A DNA stretch of 64,000 nt from Sodiomyces alkalinus F11 (taxonomy: Eukaryota; Ascomycota; Sordariomycetes; Glomerellales; Plectosphaerellaceae): the NCBI RefSeq assembly GCF_003711515.1, contig NW_021167079.1:4784677-4848676 (forward strand), given 5' to 3'. This document shows positions 53,625 through 63,432 of this stretch, one piece after another. How positions within the stretch are numbered: the stretch's first letter is position 1; each line of letters opens with the position of its first letter. Below the pieces are notes generated by a model. It was given only the letters and a program-made list of their open reading frames with translations, was not told the origin of the DNA and ran no database searches. The position numbers and the translations under genes are program-made.

Positions 53625-54299
53625 TTACAATGTGTATAGGCATCCCGCCGTTTCATCCTCGAGGTCCGATTGTCCCAAAACCTTCCATCGAGATAACACA
53701 AAATTCACTCTCTCCTCCAAACCCGACATTACAGAAGGGACTACATGGTACTCCACGCCCTCCCGTTCCAACAAGGCGCGAAACGTTCGAAACGTCTCTG
53801 TCCATTCCTCCATATCGAGCGGCATCAATCTCACCCCATCATCCAACAGCCAATCTGCACTGGGCTCGCACAGGATCACCAGCGAAGTCGCCATTCGACC
53901 CCGCAGCGACTTCCAGGCATCCGACTCCAGCATTTTCCCGGCGGCCCACGCCCCGACGTGCATCAGCGCGTAGACAATGGGGTCGACCCCGGAACGGTCC
54001 GACACCAGCCACGGTGCCTCTCGTAGAGCTGAGGTTTCTGACTCGTGCTGGGCACATAGGATGAGCTCCTGCAGTCCAAGGCACCGCTCAGGGTCATCCC
54101 TGATGTCGGCTGCCGTGAAGTGGTATTTTTGGAGAACACATCTTGCTACCTCTTTGATGATACGTGGTTGCGGTAGCGTCGTGTTGGTCTCATTTTGCAG
54201 CCTCGGATCCTTTTCTACTGCGTTGACGAGCGTCGTCTTGCCAGTGCACTGCGGGCCGACGATGTAAATATTCGGCACTTGCTTGGCCATTTGACTCAA
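53625..54299 (-). CDS. AAA_28/NadR-like P-loop ATPase or kinase
   Basis: Single exon, 224 residues. The Walker A motif GPQCTGKTT (about residues 15-23) follows a short hydrophobic strand (YIVG), and a D-R-S-G segment (SDRSGVDPIVYA) with a later VILCEPSADWL strand matches the AAA_28/NadR-like nucleoside-kinase-type fold common in filamentous fungi. Such proteins probably phosphorylate or bind a small metabolite; no substrate is evident. The start is the first Met, two codons before a second possible one. No cluster link is apparent. It is the first gene right of the transposon nest. Confidence 0.85.
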   Translation of the reverse strand: MSQMAKQVPNIYIVGPQCTGKTTLVNAVEKDPRLQNETNTTLPQPRIIKEVARCVLQKYHFTAADIRDDPERCLGLQELILCAQHESETSALREAPWLVSDRSGVDPIVYALMHVGAWAAGKMLESDAWKSLRGRMATSLVILCEPSADWLLDDGVRLMPLDMEEWTETFRTFRALLEREGVEYHVVPSVMSGLEERVNFVLSRWKVLGQSDLEDETAGCLYTL

Positions 54300-55026
54300 A
54301 TGAGAAGTGGAGTAACGATTTCCGTTCGTCGTGGTAACAAAAAACCCAAGAACGGAGGCGAATGAGTTTTGGGTGGTCGTGGTAGTTGAGGGATACTTTG
54401 GCAGTAGGACAAGCCCGGTTAGGAGACAAACGGCCAGGGGCAGAATATCTACTCAATTACAGATGAAGTGACAAGGGCAGAATTTCAAGACACCAGACCA
54501 ATCCATTAATATGAAAGGATGGAACCTCTGTTTCCATGTTTAGGCGCTGTCAGCGGACTTCATATACCTACCTGTACCTCACCTTTACCCCGACTTGATA
54601 AGGTAACACATGATGCCCCCCTTTGTTGTGTAACTCGAGCTACACGCGCCCATTTGTTGGATGTCAGTGCCTGCCTGCTTGGGTACTTGGATGTCACTGG
54701 TCAGTCTCCTCTTGTACCTTTCTTGTGGTCGGCCTCCCGCATGAGATGATGAGCTTATCGCAGGCCCAGTCGACTGTCGGTCGAACTTTCCCAGCTTTCC
54801 CCTCCTGATCATATGAATAAAATCACCTTATTTTCGGGGCAATGAAATTCCGACTGGATCCCAAGTGGCGGACTCATCCCTAACTGCCACCACTCAACTC
54901 CTCCCCTTGCCCTCCTGTATTTCTCATGATAACCTTCACTCAGCACAAGTTCTAGGTACATAACTGACCAAAGACATCGGCAAGTTACAACTACTACAGC
55001 CAAATGCGTCCCAAACTTCAAGGACC
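54300..55026. other. Divergent promoter region of AAA_28 and RdRP-helicase genes
   Basis: No gene is supported. Base composition is normal, with CT-rich stretches at about 54,870-54,930 before the RdRP-helicase start. Confidence 0.5.
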
Positions 55027-58000
55027 ATGAATCCCAAAGCATTCAACGCAGTCCTAAAAGATACGATCACTCTGGATGACCGTGTCTGGGACTTCCAACT
55101 TCCAAACCTCCCATCTCACTCCGTCCTCGACAAGAACAACCTCGTCAAGACAATCGTCTTCACCACCAATGCCGACAAAAGAAGGCAGGAGATCCGCCTC
55201 CGCTTGGAGCCTCTGGGCACGAACCGCGCAGTAACGGGCGAACCTCCTAGCCGGTTCCTCGTCGTCTCCGCCCTCGAATTCCGTCCGCTCCATGTTCCCG
55301 CCTCAGTACGCGGAGGCGGAGCGACATCGTCTGGCAAGGAAGTCAAGGGTACCCACCCGGCCACGGCGAGAGAATGCACCGAATACCTCATTCGTCTCCT
55401 CCGTGCCGGCGTTCGCGTGCAGGGGACTCATTACAACTTCTATGGTCACAGCAACAGCCAGCTCAAGTCTCGGACGTGCTTCCTCTTCGCCGCCTCCCGG
55501 GACGAGATTGCCGCCAAGGTCGCCGCCCTGGGTGACTTTACCGGTATGAAGACCGCGGCGAAGATGGCAAAGCGGATCGGTTTGCTCTTTTCCTCTTCTC
55601 GTACCGTGTTGACTATAGATCCGGCCCGTTGTGAGGATATCCCCGATGTCGAAGTTGATGGGTATACCTTTACGGATGGCTGTGGGCTGATCGCGCCGCG
55701 GCTGGCCCAAGACTTGGCGAGGAGAACCCGCGTTGTCTTCAGAAACACTCGCTACACGCCGTCGGTCTTCCAAATTCGATATAGGGGGTATAAGGGGGTT
55801 GTGACTGTGGACCCGAGAATGAAGCCCCCCGGTCCAGTGCTTAGGCTTCGCAAGTCGATGAAGAAGTTCAGCGGCGGCAACGACTATTCCTTTGCTGTTG
55901 TCGAGCATTCCAAAGTAATTCGAATCGAACCCCCAAGGCTCAAGCATCCAATGTTCTAACCATCTTCCCTCCAATTAGCCCTTCGTCTTCGGCTATCTCA
56001 ACGACGAAGTTGTCATCCTGCTGCAATTCCTTGGAATAGAACAGTCCGTCTTCCTTCGCAAGCAGCAAGAGCACTTTGAATTCCTTTCTGCCGCTCAGGT
56101 CGACCCAAGATCTGCTTTTCGCTTCCTGTCTTACCTCAACAGGCCTGACCTAGCCGAGAAAGTGCTCATGACCTCACTTGAAGATGTTCGCCCGGTCATC
56201 ACCAAGCTTGTCAACTCCGAATACGACAAGATGCTCAACAAGAGAGACGAGCAGAAATGCCACATACTGGTCCCACAGTCTCGGCTGTTATTCGGCGTAT
56301 GCGACGCCTGGGATGTCCTGAAAGAAGGCGAGTGTGCCGTGAAGGTCACTAGAGACGGGGACGGACAGCCGTATGCTCTGAGTGGCATGGAAATTCTGGT
56401 GACGAGGAATCCCTGTTTGCACCCGGGCGACTTGCAAAAGTTCAAGGTTGTCCAGCGGGATGAACTTTCCCACCTTGTGGATTGTATCGTCTTTTCCACC
56501 CGCGGGAAGAGACCTGCTGCGGACTTGATGTCCGGTGGGGATCTGGACGGAGACACCTGTAAGCCCTTGAAGCCCCCATCCGCCTATTGCTGTGTTTTTT
56601 CACGCTGACAAAGGCTATGAGTCTTTGTATGCTGGGACACGGACTTGATCCCGCGAACCATCTCTCAACCAGCCGAGTACCCTGGAGGCCGAGAACCGCT
56701 AAATTTCAAACCCATCACAGATGATGATAGGCTTGTGTACTTTGCCAAACATACCAACGCTTCTCTCGGACGGGTGAAGAGCCTCTATCTTGACTGGGCA
56801 AGGGTTCTTGGACCCATGAGCCCGCAGTGCCAGGAGTTGAATCGACTCTTCTCCCAATGCGTCGACGGCAACCGGATCAGAGTGCCACAGAAGCTGGAGA
56901 ATGCGCCGTCACCAACGCCAGAGACGCCCCCCTTCATCTTAGACGTCCTTCACGACGCAGCCAGACAGGCCATCGAAGATGAGGGGATGGTCAATCTGGA
57001 AGGATACACCTTTGATGCCCTCGAGCTGCTGTTAAGCCGCGACAATATGGCAGTCTCGGAGTTTGAGTTATTCAAACTGACGTTGGAATGGTGCAGACGA
57101 AACGCCTACTCACCAGAGGAATTCGTCCACCTCTTCGACTTCAATGTTCTCACTGCGGAGGAGAAGGCTTGGGTCTTGACTCAACTGCCGTCCTCTTCGA
57201 CCGCGCCGAGTCTAGTCATGAATGCCCTGTCCAGCTCTGACCTACTCAGTAGGGAGGAAATTGACCGGTTTCATCTCGGCTCACCCGGGATACGGTGGAA
57301 GGCATTCTACAGCTCCTCCCGAGACCGTCTCGCCACATTTCTTGAAGCAGGCAGTAAGGCCCTGGCACTCTTTCACAAGACGTTGCTCGTGATTCGAGTT
57401 GACGATCGCTTAACGGTCGCGATCTACGTCCCGCAGAAAATCGAGACATCGCAGGACTGCCTCGTCGACGACCGGGTGCGTCTCATCGCCGTCCCTCATT
57501 CGCAAGGTGGAGAGAGGCAGAGCCGGCTTGTCCTCCCGACGAAGAAACGATACCGCCTGTACTGCGATGGAGGTACCTTCCAGCTCTTCGAGAATCAACG
57601 TGGTAATACGTGGATCTTCATCGGTCGATCTCCTTCTGACGACAGCGGTTACCGTGGAATCGAGAACAAGGGAGACAGGCGCCGACAGCGACAGGCCACT
57701 CTTGATCAGGGTCACAATTTCGACTTCCGAGTGAGCATCGCGTTGGACAAGTTCAGCCGAGGCTTGCAAACCCACGTTGGCCGCGTGAACCGAAATGGCG
57801 TCTCTGCAGCGGTGAGTTGCCCCCTATCCCGGACCGCACCCGACGCCGCACCGAACCCTGTGCTCTGGTTTGCAAAGCCCACTGATCACATCTTAATCCA
57901 GGAGATTTACGTGATAAGTAATCGAGATGTGAAGTCGATGCGCACGCTAGAATTGTGGCTTCAGCACATCGACACCGAGGAGAAACACGAGCTTTTCCAA

Positions 58001-60450
58001 CAGACGCCAAAAGACTACTCCACGTCCACCCTGCGGGACGTGGACTGGTCCTCGGAGCCCAAACACATCGCTCAAGTCGCCAAGTTCGAAATCATAACAA
58101 CTTTGACCACACTTGAGACAATAACGGCGTACCGCGAGGTCTTCGACTGGCTCTTAGAGAGGGATCAGAAGGCTCTGCTGATCCGGTGTTACGACTTCCT
58201 GTTGTCGGAATTGAGACGTGGCGGCCTCAGTCAAATCGAACCCAGGGAACTGTTGTGGGCAATGCTATGGTTTCTGAGGCGAGCCCCATTTCTTGCGCTC
58301 TGTTTCTCCAAGCTCGAAGACTGGAACCGACTACCCGAAGACATGACCGCCGTCCTAGAAATGTCTGGCGCTGAAATCCTCCGAGCCTTCGTGTTGGCGG
58401 TGGAAGTGAACCAAGGTCTTGTCGTGACTCCGTTCCGAACGGTCTTGTCCCAACGAAAATCTCTGAGCCTTGACGATTTTGCCGATGTGGTAGAACTGAT
58501 TTCCTTGACGGTACAATCACCAGACGTCGCTCTCGATCTCCTGTTGGAGTGCTTGGAAACCGAAAGCCTCCGACTTCTCCCCGGGCGGCCAGCAGTCGTC
58601 CGTCATTTCGTTCGCAGCGTGATTGGCATCGCGCTCGATCACATCGGAGAGGTCCGAGAGCAAGGGAAGACGCGCAAAGACTTGCTCGAACTGCATCCAT
58701 GTCACGACGGCACCACTCGCTACCCGTTGGTTGAGGTCTCCTTTCGGATAGATGCCCCCGGAGGGACCCCCGAGACGTCGGCACATGTTCGTTTCTTCGC
58801 GGCCAGCGCCCCAACAAATTCCACCAGCGGGAGGCGGTATACCATGGACGCCATTGTCCGTGAGAGCCAACAGGGCCTCGCCAAGTTTGAGTGTTTCCAT
58901 CCACTCCCCCCATTCTATTCGCTTTGCTCATGGAAGATGCGGCATTGCGGCCCATTCGTGACCACGGCAACTATGTTTGATGCCGTGCGAAAATTCGCCA
59001 CGGATTCCGACGACTGCTGCCACATTGTAAGCGACGTGCTGGGAATTCGAGGCTCGGGGCCCTTGGCAGCGTCAAAGGAAGGCGATGGGGAGGCATTCCC
59101 ACAACTCAACAGAAGCCAGGCCGCTGCCGTGCATGCCTCCTTGCGACATCCGCTGACATTGATTTGGGGTCCACCAGGGACTGGAAAGACGCAGACCATC
59201 GTGCAAATCATCCAGTCGCTCCAGGGAGTGAACACAGAGGCGCGGATATTGGTCACCGCACCGACACACAATGCAGTGGACAATGTCATGCGCAGGTATC
59301 TACGCCAAGCCCAGCCTGGAGGAAAGGGGCCCCTGAGGGTGTCTACAGAGGTGAGTGGTTTCGACGCGGTTCTCCTTGGGCAATACCTTAGTTAGCTGAC
59401 AAGCAGCCCACCTAGGTCAGGAAGGTAGCACCAGACCTCAGAAAGTACACCTGTGACGCCATGGCAGGGCAGGAGATATACAACGACCACGCCGCCATGA
59501 GACAAGCAAAGAAAAGGGTCAAAGAATGCCCGTTGATCTTCACGACTTGCATAGGCGCCGGGTTAGGCCTGCTCCGCGGGCTGAGCTTTGACGCCGTCAT
59601 CATAGACGAGGCGTCTCAACAGACCGAGCCAGCGTCTCTGGTGCCTCTGACCAAGGGATGTCGCAAGGCAATTTTGGTCGGAGATCATGTCCAGTTACGA
59701 CCCACTGTACAGCAGCATGCGGCCTCGGTGGGGTTCGACGTGTCTCTCTTCGAGAGGCTTTATCGCCATGAAGGGCGGGGCGGGCCTGCCAAGGTGATGC
59801 TTGACACACAATACCGAATGCATCCGAGTATTTGCGGTTTCATATCGGAGCAGTTCTACGAGAGCAAGCTGCGTACGGGCATTTCCGAGCGGGATCGGGT
59901 CCCGGTCCACTCGGTATTCCCTTGGCCAACAGGAAAAGGCGGAGGTCGGGAGCAGATGGTCTTCCTCGAGTGCGGTGCGAGGGAGGAACTCGGTCAGAAG
60001 TCCAAGCTGAACAAGGCGCAAGGAGAAATGTGTCTTCGGGTCTGTCAGATGCTCCAGGCGAGTGACGATGCGACGAGTCAAGAGAAAGCAGCGGGGACGC
60101 AATTCATTGCCGTTCTCACACCGTATTCCCGCCAAGCCGAGTTTACGAAGCAGTTGTTGTCCGGTCTAACCGGCGACATTGAGGTTTCCAGCATCGACGG
60201 GTTTCAGGGCCGGGAGGCGGACATCGTGGTGTTTATGACGGTGCGATGCAACGAGAACCAAGAGATTGGATTCCTGACTGATATGAGGCGCATGAATGTT
60301 GCCCTCACGCGCTGTCGCTCTGGGCTGATCGTCATTGGGAATCGGGCGACGCTGGCTGGGGGAGAGGCAGAGCTGGAGAGCACGGTGATGTGGCGGCGGC
60401 TTTTGAACCACGTGGTAGAAACGCGCCTGTCAACGAGAGAAGAGAATTAG
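55027..60450 (+). CDS. RNA-dependent RNA polymerase fused to an SF1 (UPF1/SEN1-type) helicase
   Basis: Exons 55027-55914, 55979-56558, 56622-59350 and 59416-60450 stay in frame for 1,743 residues. Residues 1-about 590 are a cellular RdRP: HSNSQLK, TDGCGLIA, FQIRYRGYKGV, a VTRNPCLHPGD segment and the catalytic DLDGD at 484-488, completed by FFVCWDTDLIP after intron 2. About 600-700 holds a helical segment resembling a BACK domain, followed by a long unassigned middle. The C-terminal part is a full SF1 helicase: GPPGTGKTQT from 1339, TAPTHNAVDNV, DEASQQ from 1463, GDHVQLRPT, YRMHPSI, GFQGRE at about 1661 and NVALTR. Presumed role: making double-stranded RNA for silencing while the helicase clears template structure or protein. 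Rdp1/Hrr1 and SAD-1/SAD-3 do this as separate proteins. Intron 2 uses a GAG acceptor, which is unusual but forced by the conserved frame. The fusion frame is continuous within exon 3, so mis-joined gene models are unlikely. Confidence 0.9.
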
Positions 60451-60833: not shown

Positions 60834-61433
60834 ATGTCCACCATCTCCGTTGCTAGTCTCCAACACATCACGGCCAACAAACTCTCGCAGTTGCTCCTCG
60901 CCGAGCAGGCCGCAGCCACCGAGCAGGCCGCAGCCACCGAGCAGGCCGCAGCCATCGAGCAGGTCGCAGCCACCGATCCCACCGTTTCTGTAGTCGATGT
61001 CCGCGACGATGGTGCGTTTCCCTTCCTGCCGATCTGGCCGGGCGTCATTTTACTCTTTCACTCCTTTGGGCAATGCCAAACTGCTGACATCAACTCTTTC
61101 GCAGACTACATCGGCGGCCATATCAAGGGCTGCATCAACGTTCCCTCGCGTTCGCTCGACGCCATGATGCCCTCTCTCGTCCGCCGACTACAAGACAAAA
61201 AGACTGTCGTCTTCCATTGTGCTCTTTCCCAGCAACGAGGGCCCAGCGCTGCGCTGCAGTACTTGCGGGAGCGCAACCAGATCGTCAAGCCGGGGACAGG
61301 GGCGGCCGACGTCAACCTGAACCAGACCGTTTACGTCCTCGACCGGGGGTTTGTCGGCTGGCAGGAAACATATGGCGAGGATGAACGCCTGACCGAAGGC
61401 TACGTCAAGGAACTATGGCAGGACGGGCACTGA
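60834..61433 (+). CDS. Rhodanese-domain protein, Cdc25/Acr2 type
   Basis: Exons 60834-61011 and 61105-61433 encode 168 residues. The active-site loop is HCALSQQRGP, a Cys-x5-Arg signature typical of Cdc25-like phosphatases and Acr2-type arsenate reductases rather than the six-residue loop of sulfurtransferases. The DVRDDDYIGGHIKGCINVPS segment, assembled by splicing, is the standard rhodanese beta-strand and turn. Family members reduce arsenate or dephosphorylate proteins (fission yeast Ibp1 is similar). An Ala/Glu/Gln insert made of EQAAAT repeats (about residues 24-47) sits between the first helix and the core and looks like recent repeat expansion. It is followed by an HD phosphohydrolase gene; no functional link is evident. 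Confidence 0.87.
   Translation: MSTISVASLQHITANKLSQLLLAEQAAATEQAAATEQAAAIEQVAATDPTVSVVDVRDDGAFPFLPIWPGVILLFHSFGQCQTADINSFADYIGGHIKGCINVPSRSLDAMMPSLVRRLQDKKTVVFHCALSQQRGPSAALQYLRERNQIVKPGTGAADVNLNQTVYVLDRGFVGWQETYGEDERLTEGYVKELWQDGH
60903..60974 (+). repeat. 18-bp tandem repeat coding EQAAAT
   Basis: Four copies of an 18-bp unit (GAGCAGGCCGCAGCCACC and variants) inside the rhodanese gene. The unit is a multiple of three, so copy-number changes keep frame. Confidence 0.85.
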
Positions 61434-62374: not shown

Positions 62375-63432
62375 ATGTCTCCCCCTCCCAGCGCTGCGGA
62401 TGGCGCAGGCGGTTGCTCTAAAGCCGACGACCAGGTAGACATCAACAGTGCGTGACCATTTACTCAGTCCTTTCCCTCCTCACCCCGTACGCGATCGCGC
62501 TTGAACTGCCCTGACGCGTCTTTTACTTTTATTCCGCAGATCTCGGTTACGTCAAGACGCCCCAAGTCGACGGTCCATGGACCATTGAGAAAGTGGTCGC
62601 TTCCATCTCTGACGATGCGCCGCCATCCTCTTCGGGGACCAGCTCGCCCTTGCCCTTCTTCCATATGCTCGAACGCCTAAAAACAACCAAGCGCGAAGGA
62701 TGGCGCCGCTTTGGCATCGACAGGTATATCCCATTCCCACCGAGCCCCGGGGCACCGGGCGAGCATGCCTCCACCACGATCTTTTGGCGACTGTAGCTTA
62801 CCTGTACAATTTCTTTTCTTTTCTTTTTTTCTTCTTTTCGTTACAGGGGAGAATCCATCGCCGACCACATGTACCGCATGTCCCTCCTCACCTTCTTCGC
62901 CCCGCCCGCCCTGGCGCCCCGTCTGGACCTCAACCGGTGCATGAAGATGTGCCTGGTACACGACATGGCCGAGTCGCTCGTCGGCGACATCACGCCCGTC
63001 GACGGCGTGCCCAAGCCGGAGAAGAACCGCCGCGAGGCCGACACCATGGACTATCTCACCCGGGAACTGCTGGGGAACGTGTACGGCGGGCTCGCGGGGG
63101 CGGAGATCCGCGCCATTTGGCAGGAGTACGAGGACAGCGAGACGCTCGAGAGCCGGTTCGTCCACGACATAGACAAGATGGAGCTGCTTTTGCAGATGCT
63201 CGAGTACGAGAAGCGGGCCCGCGGCAGGCTCGACCTGGGCGAGTTTGCCTACGTCGCTACCAAGTTCTCGCTGCCGGAGACGAAGGAATGGGCCGATGCG
63301 TTGCTCAAGGAGAGGGAGAAATTCTGGGGGTCCGTGGAGCATGTCCACGGAGAGGCGGGCGTTGAGGGAGGGGTGAAGCGCGACACCAGGGAAAGGCAGG
63401 ACGAGTATTACTCCAAGGGAGTGAACGAGTGA
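62375..63432 (+). CDS. HD-domain phosphohydrolase, HDDC2/5'-deoxynucleotidase type
   Basis: Exons 62375-62447, 62540-62723 and 62847-63432 encode 280 residues. The metal-binding HD pattern is visible: His in ESIADHMYRMSLL (completed by splicing intron 2), HD in CLVHDMAESLVGDITP and a later Asp in DIDKMELLLQ. This matches eukaryotic HDDC2/YGL101W and bacterial YfbR, which hydrolyse deoxyribonucleoside 5'-monophosphates. Start chosen for its CCACCATG context; the first 25 residues are low in complexity. A C-terminal polar tail of about 35 residues extends past the core. Probably a cytosolic or nuclear nucleotide-pool enzyme. Confidence 0.9.

What the first reader, a model, noticed from the sequence alone, without database searches (positions are those of the whole stretch)
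55027..60450. Single polypeptide joining a silencing RdRP to an SF1 helicase
A complete cellular RdRP with DLDGD and a complete SF1 helicase share one frame of 1,743 codons; the long third exon (56,622-59,350) runs from just after the RdRP active site through Walker A without interruption. In fission yeast and Neurospora the RdRP (Rdp1, SAD-1) and a helicase (Hrr1, SAD-3) are separate proteins of the same process. A natural fusion would fix their stoichiometry and couple template remodelling to dsRNA synthesis. Dictyostelium RdRPs carry a Dicer-type SF2 helicase instead. I cannot say whether this SF1 fusion has been described before.
Basis: partly seen in the sequence, partly recalled or inferred. 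Interest (0 to 1): 0.82.

Follow-up and report, generated by a model that had tools for sequence, protein, structure and literature searches.

The report
Known fungal RNA polymerase–helicase fusion
One fungal gene makes a single protein that joins a gene-silencing RNA-copying enzyme to an RNA helicase; the joined form is real, but it is an old, shared design of many ascomycete fungi that has already been described and knocked out in Fusarium.

Summary
A five-exon gene (55027-60450) encodes a cellular RdRP (PF05183) joined to an SF1 helicase. Only 1 of 101 full-length relatives has 10 or more residues there.

The fusion is not new. Of 120 listed relatives, 119 carry RdRP, linker and helicase. 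They come from at least six classes of filamentous ascomycetes (class names recalled). The Fusarium graminearum relative, FgRdRP5 (FGSG_09076), was described in 2015 as RdRP plus helicase and deleted in 2024. The mutant discharges fewer ascospores, and the paper gives the gene a role in exonic siRNA production.

The fused helicase is UPF1/Sen1-like. This genome keeps three separate ZNFX1-type helicases, the branch of Hrr1.

Still open are the mechanism (what the helicase does for the polymerase) and the nature of the family-specific linker of about 700 residues. The host matches Sodiomyces alkalinus F11, whose public protein for this gene is a 359-residue fragment.

The parts
55027..55914 (+). 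exon 1: short N-terminal arm and start of the RdRP domain
   Evidence: ATG 55027; columns before the junction occupied in 93% of 101 relatives
55915..55978 (+). intron 1 (64 nt, GT-AG, CTAAC branch-like site by eye)
55979..56558 (+). exon 2: RdRP core up to the active site
56540..56554 (+). RdRP catalytic motif DLDGD (residues 484-488)
   Evidence: all three Asp kept in 98 of 101 relatives
56559..56621 (+). intron 2 (63 nt)
   Evidence: neighbouring columns occupied in 97-99% of 101 relatives
   Evidence: 10 or more residues present in 1 of 101 relatives
59168..59191 (+). helicase Walker A, GPPGTGKT
   Evidence: GKT kept in 99 of 101 relatives
59605..59616 (+). helicase motif II, DEAS
   Evidence: DE kept in 98 of 101 relatives
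59737..60345 (+). AAA_12 (PF13087), second RecA-like half of the helicase
   Evidence: E 1.2e-50

Best explanation
The gene is the Sodiomyces orthologue of FgRdRP5, a separate type of fungal cellular RNA-dependent RNA polymerase. It has a short N-terminal arm, an RDR2-like catalytic core, a family-specific linker of about 700 residues and a UPF1/Sen1-like SF1 helicase in one polypeptide. It most likely makes double-stranded RNA from selected transcripts for Dicer, chiefly in sexual development. The helicase probably moves along the template in an ATP-driven way, stripping protein and structure and holding the polymerase on it. Shown: the anatomy, the conservation of both active sites, the orthology, and (in Fusarium, by others) the deletion phenotype and a role in exonic siRNA. 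Inferred: that both activities work, that they act on one RNA molecule, and the direction of travel. UPF1-type helicases run 5' to 3' (recalled), while an RdRP copies its template from the 3' end (recalled). So the helicase is better placed to carry the polymerase to the 3' end than to plough ahead of it.
For: One frame with both domains. Of 120 listed relatives, 119 hold RdRP+linker+helicase by profiles built here from 101 of them plus the window; 290 were found at E up to 0.001 among 7986 scored candidates. FGSG_09076 aligns over residues 4-1737 at 52% identity. DxDGD is kept in 98, GKT in 99, DE in 98 and all of them in 95 of 101. DLDGD-to-Walker A spacing is 825 residues here against a median of 829 (748-966) in the 111 of 120 relatives where both motifs were found. 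RdRP tree: 12 fused rows together (91/97), apart from three own paralogues. Helicase tree: 14 fused rows together, 100/99. RNAi machinery: Piwi matches at 2 places, Dicer_dimer at 2, and three further RdRPs. FgRdRP5: domain composition, 10-fold up in sporulation and 10.5-fold in the sexual stage, ascospore discharge 47.6% of wild type on deletion, role in ex-siRNA (PMC11237814, passages).
Against: No RNA or protein data for this species. No biochemical assay of either activity was seen in the passages read. The deletion phenotype does not separate helicase from polymerase. In the same paper, genes down only in the Fgrdrp5 deletion were enriched in ribosome biogenesis, and the authors also consider rRNA-processing or NMD-like roles for the helicase. 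Structure prediction failed, so no contact between the two parts was modelled.
Confidence: 0.8

Rival explanations
1. The fusion is a gene-model or assembly artefact that joins two neighbouring genes.
For: Several public models hold only the RdRP half or only the helicase half, and the public S. alkalinus protein is a 359-residue RdRP fragment.
Against: 119 of 120 listed relatives, from many species, carry all three parts with similar spacing. A linker profile found nothing at E up to 0.001 in the 13 own-genome regions searched.
Confidence: 0.02
2. The protein joins the fungal orthologues of the Rdp1/Hrr1 or SAD-1/SAD-3 pair.
For: Both pairs act in RNA silencing, and SAD-3 and Hrr1 are helicases (PMC5384783 and PMC9276528, passages).
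Against: The fused helicase scores UPF1 3e-82, SMUBP-2 2e-65, Sen1 2e-64, ZNFX1 6e-44 by a profile of 50 relatives. The tree separates it from the three own ZNFX1-type helicases. A separate RdRP with an RRM-like match is present.
Confidence: 0.03
3. The helicase half does a separate, NMD- or rRNA-related job, and the fusion serves co-expression rather than coupled chemistry.
For: The helicase is UPF1/Sen1-like. Genes down only in the Fgrdrp5 deletion were enriched in ribosome biogenesis, as its authors note (PMC11237814).
Against: The genome has its own UPF1 (E 3e-202 to a solved UPF1 chain) and its own Sen1-like protein. The Fgrdrp5 deletion also affects ex-siRNA.
Confidence: 0.15

Closest known systems
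FgRdRP5 (FGSG_09076) of Fusarium graminearum and FFUJ_03638 of F. fujikuroi
   Same: FgRdRP5 has the same order, RdRP then SF1 helicase, and aligns end to end at 52% identity. FFUJ_03638 is described as an RdRP that also presents ATPase domains (PMC11130915, passages); its sequence was not compared here.
   Different: Another species. The papers call the FgRdRP5 helicase DEAD-like plus AAA; here it is placed as UPF1/Sen1-like SF1. The passages read give no class-wide distribution.
Plant RDR2
   Same: Best solved relative of the RdRP core: E 3e-60 for the single sequence, 2.5e-95 for the profile. PMC4870495 already states that FgRdRp5 is more closely related to Arabidopsis RdRp2 (passage).
   Different: The match starts at residue 453 of RDR2 and at residue 120 here; RDR2 carries no helicase (recalled).
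QDE-1 of Neurospora
   Same: Cellular RdRP of the same family.
   Different: Much weaker match (E 5e-20, best stretch around the active site only).
UPF1/NAM7 helicase
   Same: Best solved relative of the helicase; the profile match runs as one stretch of 452 positions.
   Different: No RdRP (recalled); UPF1 is also present as a separate gene in this genome.
Hrr1 / SAD-3 / RnhA (ZNFX1-type)
   Same: Helicases that work in RdRP-linked silencing (PMC5384783, PMC9276528, passages).
   Different: Separate proteins; three ZNFX1-type helicases are separate in this genome and lie on another branch.

Membership tests
FgRdRP5-type RdRP-helicase | RdRP followed by an SF1 helicase in one polypeptide | tested here: met
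FgRdRP5-type RdRP-helicase | End-to-end homology, including the linker, with FGSG_09076 | tested here: met
   residues 4-1737 at 52% identity
FgRdRP5-type RdRP-helicase | Branch separate from the other RdRPs of the same genome | tested here: met
   fused rows 91/97, apart from 3 own paralogues, whose long branches make their exact places unsure
FgRdRP5-type RdRP-helicase | Needed for exonic siRNA and ascospore discharge | not testable with these tools
   shown only for Fusarium (PMC11237814)
Cellular RdRP (PF05183) | Profile match with intact DxDGD | tested here: met
UPF1/Sen1-like SF1 helicase | SF1 motifs intact and best match within the UPF1-like group | tested here: met
   the own-genome profile scan scores Sen1-like 253 and UPF1 244 bits, so which of the two is nearer is undecided
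Hrr1/SAD-3 (ZNFX1-type) helicase | Groups with ZNFX1-type helicases | tested here: not met
   named Hrr1 and SAD-3 sequences were not in the tree
SAD-1-type RdRP | N-terminal RRM | tested here: not met
   one search lists no RRM at E up to 0.5; the RdRP on C16 has an RRM-like match just under the Pfam cut-off

The most novel reading that the evidence does not exclude
This is an ancient self-delivering silencing polymerase. The UPF1-like helicase runs 5' to 3' along a transcript, reaches its 3' end and seats the fused RdRP there, so one protein both chooses and converts a template without a separate Hrr1-type helicase. It may date back to before ascomycetes and basidiomycetes split, since basidiomycete RdRPs share the linker.
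Probability: 0.15. Interest if true: 0.6.

Novelty: new member of a known kind. Interest (0 to 1): 0.3.

Why it matters
Hrr1 and SAD-3 are known as separate helicases that work beside a silencing polymerase. A protein that keeps a polymerase and a helicase in one chain, across the ascomycete classes seen here, is a ready-made system for asking what the helicase does for dsRNA synthesis: mutate one motif and leave the other. The work also places the helicase (UPF1/Sen1-like, not Hrr1/SAD-3), finds a likely hidden in-frame intron, and shows that the public protein for this gene is a fragment.

Tried and rejected
Rejected: the Hrr1/SAD-3 identity of the helicase; the artefact reading; the uninterrupted exon 3.

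Pfam gave TLD at E 0.21 on one of two window pieces and nothing on the other, and BACK at E 0.03 in 1 of 20 relatives. Neither is significant; the BACK-like look was first noticed by eye.

Two structure predictions failed as interrupted.

Whether basidiomycete relatives carry the helicase is open. Those seen came, whose 626-residue query excludes proteins over about 1,095 residues, and some are marked partial. Of the 290 hits only 120 were listed, so longer basidiomycete proteins may lie unseen among the rest.

The first RdRP tree had a 128-residue stub for the C3 row. It was rebuilt with a longer C3 row, without the S. alcalophilus row, and without P0216, a metagenome protein without organism name that I had labelled basidiomycete and that fell outside the basidiomycete group. 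Fused support was 86/84 and 91/97. In one search, the labels AQR-like (C1b) and the C19a row were given by eye, not by a search.

Papers: the passages shown of PMC4890784, PMC4182546, PMC6572790 and PMC11203536 name no fused protein. PMC3276149 is not held.
Full report
What is there. The window lies in a 43.4 Mb, 22-contig genome. A public protein named SODALDRAFT_27691 of Sodiomyces alkalinus F11, on a contig of 7,534,047 bases, matches this gene; the window's contig C1 has the same length. The gene runs from ATG 55027 to the stop at 60450. A fourth intron was missed: 57812-57901, 90 nt, beginning GTGAGT and ending CAG, a multiple of three and free of stops. It reads through as 30 residues; 1 of 101 relatives has 10 or more residues there. 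The corrected protein has 1,713 residues. The open frame is far beyond chance: 924 codons against at most 251 in 300 single-base shuffles.

Domains. The best solved relatives are plant RDR2 for the polymerase (3e-60; QDE-1 only 5e-20) and UPF1/NAM7 for the helicase (2e-59; ZNFX1 1e-25). With a profile of 50 relatives, the window not among them, the order is UPF1 3e-82, SMUBP-2 2e-65, Sen1 2e-64, ZNFX1 6e-44. About 120 residues precede the match to RDR2, against 452 in RDR2 itself; 101 relatives have a median of 114 residues before that point, none over 200. The linker of about 700 residues between the enzymes has no significant Pfam match. A profile of it found nothing at E up to 0.001 in 13 own-genome regions with helicases and RdRPs, and four linker sub-profiles found nothing below E 0.8 there.

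Conservation. The search with the 1,743-residue reading found 290 proteins at E up to 0.001 among 7,986 scored candidates and listed 120, at 42-81% identity; 86 of the 120, by my count of the listing, cover 99-100% of the query. Profiles built here find RdRP, linker and helicase in 119 of those 120; 101 of the 120 had gone into the profiles. They include Fusarium, Trichoderma, Colletotrichum, Glarea, Venturia, Parastagonospora, Aspergillus, Fonsecaea, lichen fungi, Ascobolus and Kalaharituber: Sordario-, Leotio-, Dothideo-, Eurotio-, Lecanoro- and Pezizomycetes (class names recalled). Dactylella, placed in Orbiliomycetes from memory, has RdRP end, linker and helicase. Over all three protein searches, 140 of 347 listed proteins show all three parts; the length bounds favour short or split models. 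The three catalytic Asp are kept in 98, GKT in 99, motif II DE in 98, and all together in 95 of 101.

Trees. Fourteen fused helicases (the window and 13 relatives chosen for spread) form one clade (100/99), apart from three ZNFX1-type helicases of the same genome (97/93). The own-genome rows have long branches and the program warns of it, so the nearest neighbour, UPF1 or Sen1, is not settled. In the first RdRP tree fused support was 86/84. After mending one row and dropping two (told in Tried and rejected), 12 fused RdRPs form one clade (91/97), next to six basidiomycete RdRPs and apart from the three own paralogues, which again have long branches. The paralogues are one with an RRM-like match on C16, one with PH_fung_RdRP on C12, and one on C3 that I call QDE-1-like by inference only. 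The basidiomycete proteins share the linker. Whether they also carry the helicase could not be seen.

What is known. PMC4515635 (2015; [quoted passage not shown] PMC4870495 (2016; passages) calls it closer to Arabidopsis RdRp2 and a predicted target of viral siRNA. PMC11237814 (2024; passages) puts it on a separate branch. It reports 10-fold and 10.5-fold higher expression in sporulation and the sexual stage, ascospore discharge at 47.6% of wild type on deletion, and a role in Dicer-dependent exonic siRNA. It mentions SAD-3, Hrr1 and NAM7 in its discussion. PMC11130915 (passages) notes ATPase domains in one F. fujikuroi RdRP, FFUJ_03638. Hrr1 is called the S. pombe orthologue of ZNFX-1 in PMC9276528 (passages). 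The listings show no title on the distribution of this fusion; that library lacks most subscription journals.

How it most likely works. The genome has Piwi matches at two places, Dicer_dimer at two, and three further RdRPs, so RNAi machinery is present. The fused enzyme most likely turns chosen transcripts into dsRNA for Dicer. UPF1-type helicases move 5' to 3' and RdRPs start at the template's 3' end (both recalled), so the helicase would more easily bring the polymerase to that end than clear the path in front of it. This is inference; the passages read show no assay of any member.

Verdict. The gene is real and well preserved, and the fusion is genuine, but it is a member of a described family. 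The remaining interest lies in the untested coupling and the unnamed linker.

Noticed in passing
window 57812-57901: A 90-nt GT-AG intron in frame and without a stop, which makes a 30-residue false insert in any reading that keeps exon 3 whole.
   Followed up: yes
window 55027-60450: The public protein of this gene, SODALDRAFT_27691, is only 359 residues: an RdRP fragment without the DLDGD motif or the helicase.
   Followed up: partly
L029, L030, L033 (contigs C10, C2, C19): Three separate ZNFX1-type helicases in the same genome; one is presumably the SAD-3/Hrr1 orthologue.
   Followed up: partly
window 56951-57811: The start of the linker looks BACK-like and perhaps TLDc-like by eye; Pfam support is not significant (BACK E 0.03 in 1 of 20 relatives, TLD E 0.21 here).
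   Followed up: partly
P0198, P0203, P0208, P0212: Basidiomycete RdRPs share the linker with the ascomycete fusion, so the joined gene may be older than the ascomycetes.
   Followed up: partly
window 53625-54452 (-): An open frame with a P-loop (GPQCTGKTT), by eye a small ATPase or kinase-like protein, upstream on the opposite strand.
   Followed up: no
window 60837-61433 (+): An open frame that by eye resembles a rhodanese or Cdc25-type phosphatase, with an Ala-Glu-Gln-rich repeat near its start.
   Followed up: no
window 62797-63432 (+): An open frame that by eye resembles an HD-domain nucleotidase (HDDC2-like).
   Followed up: no
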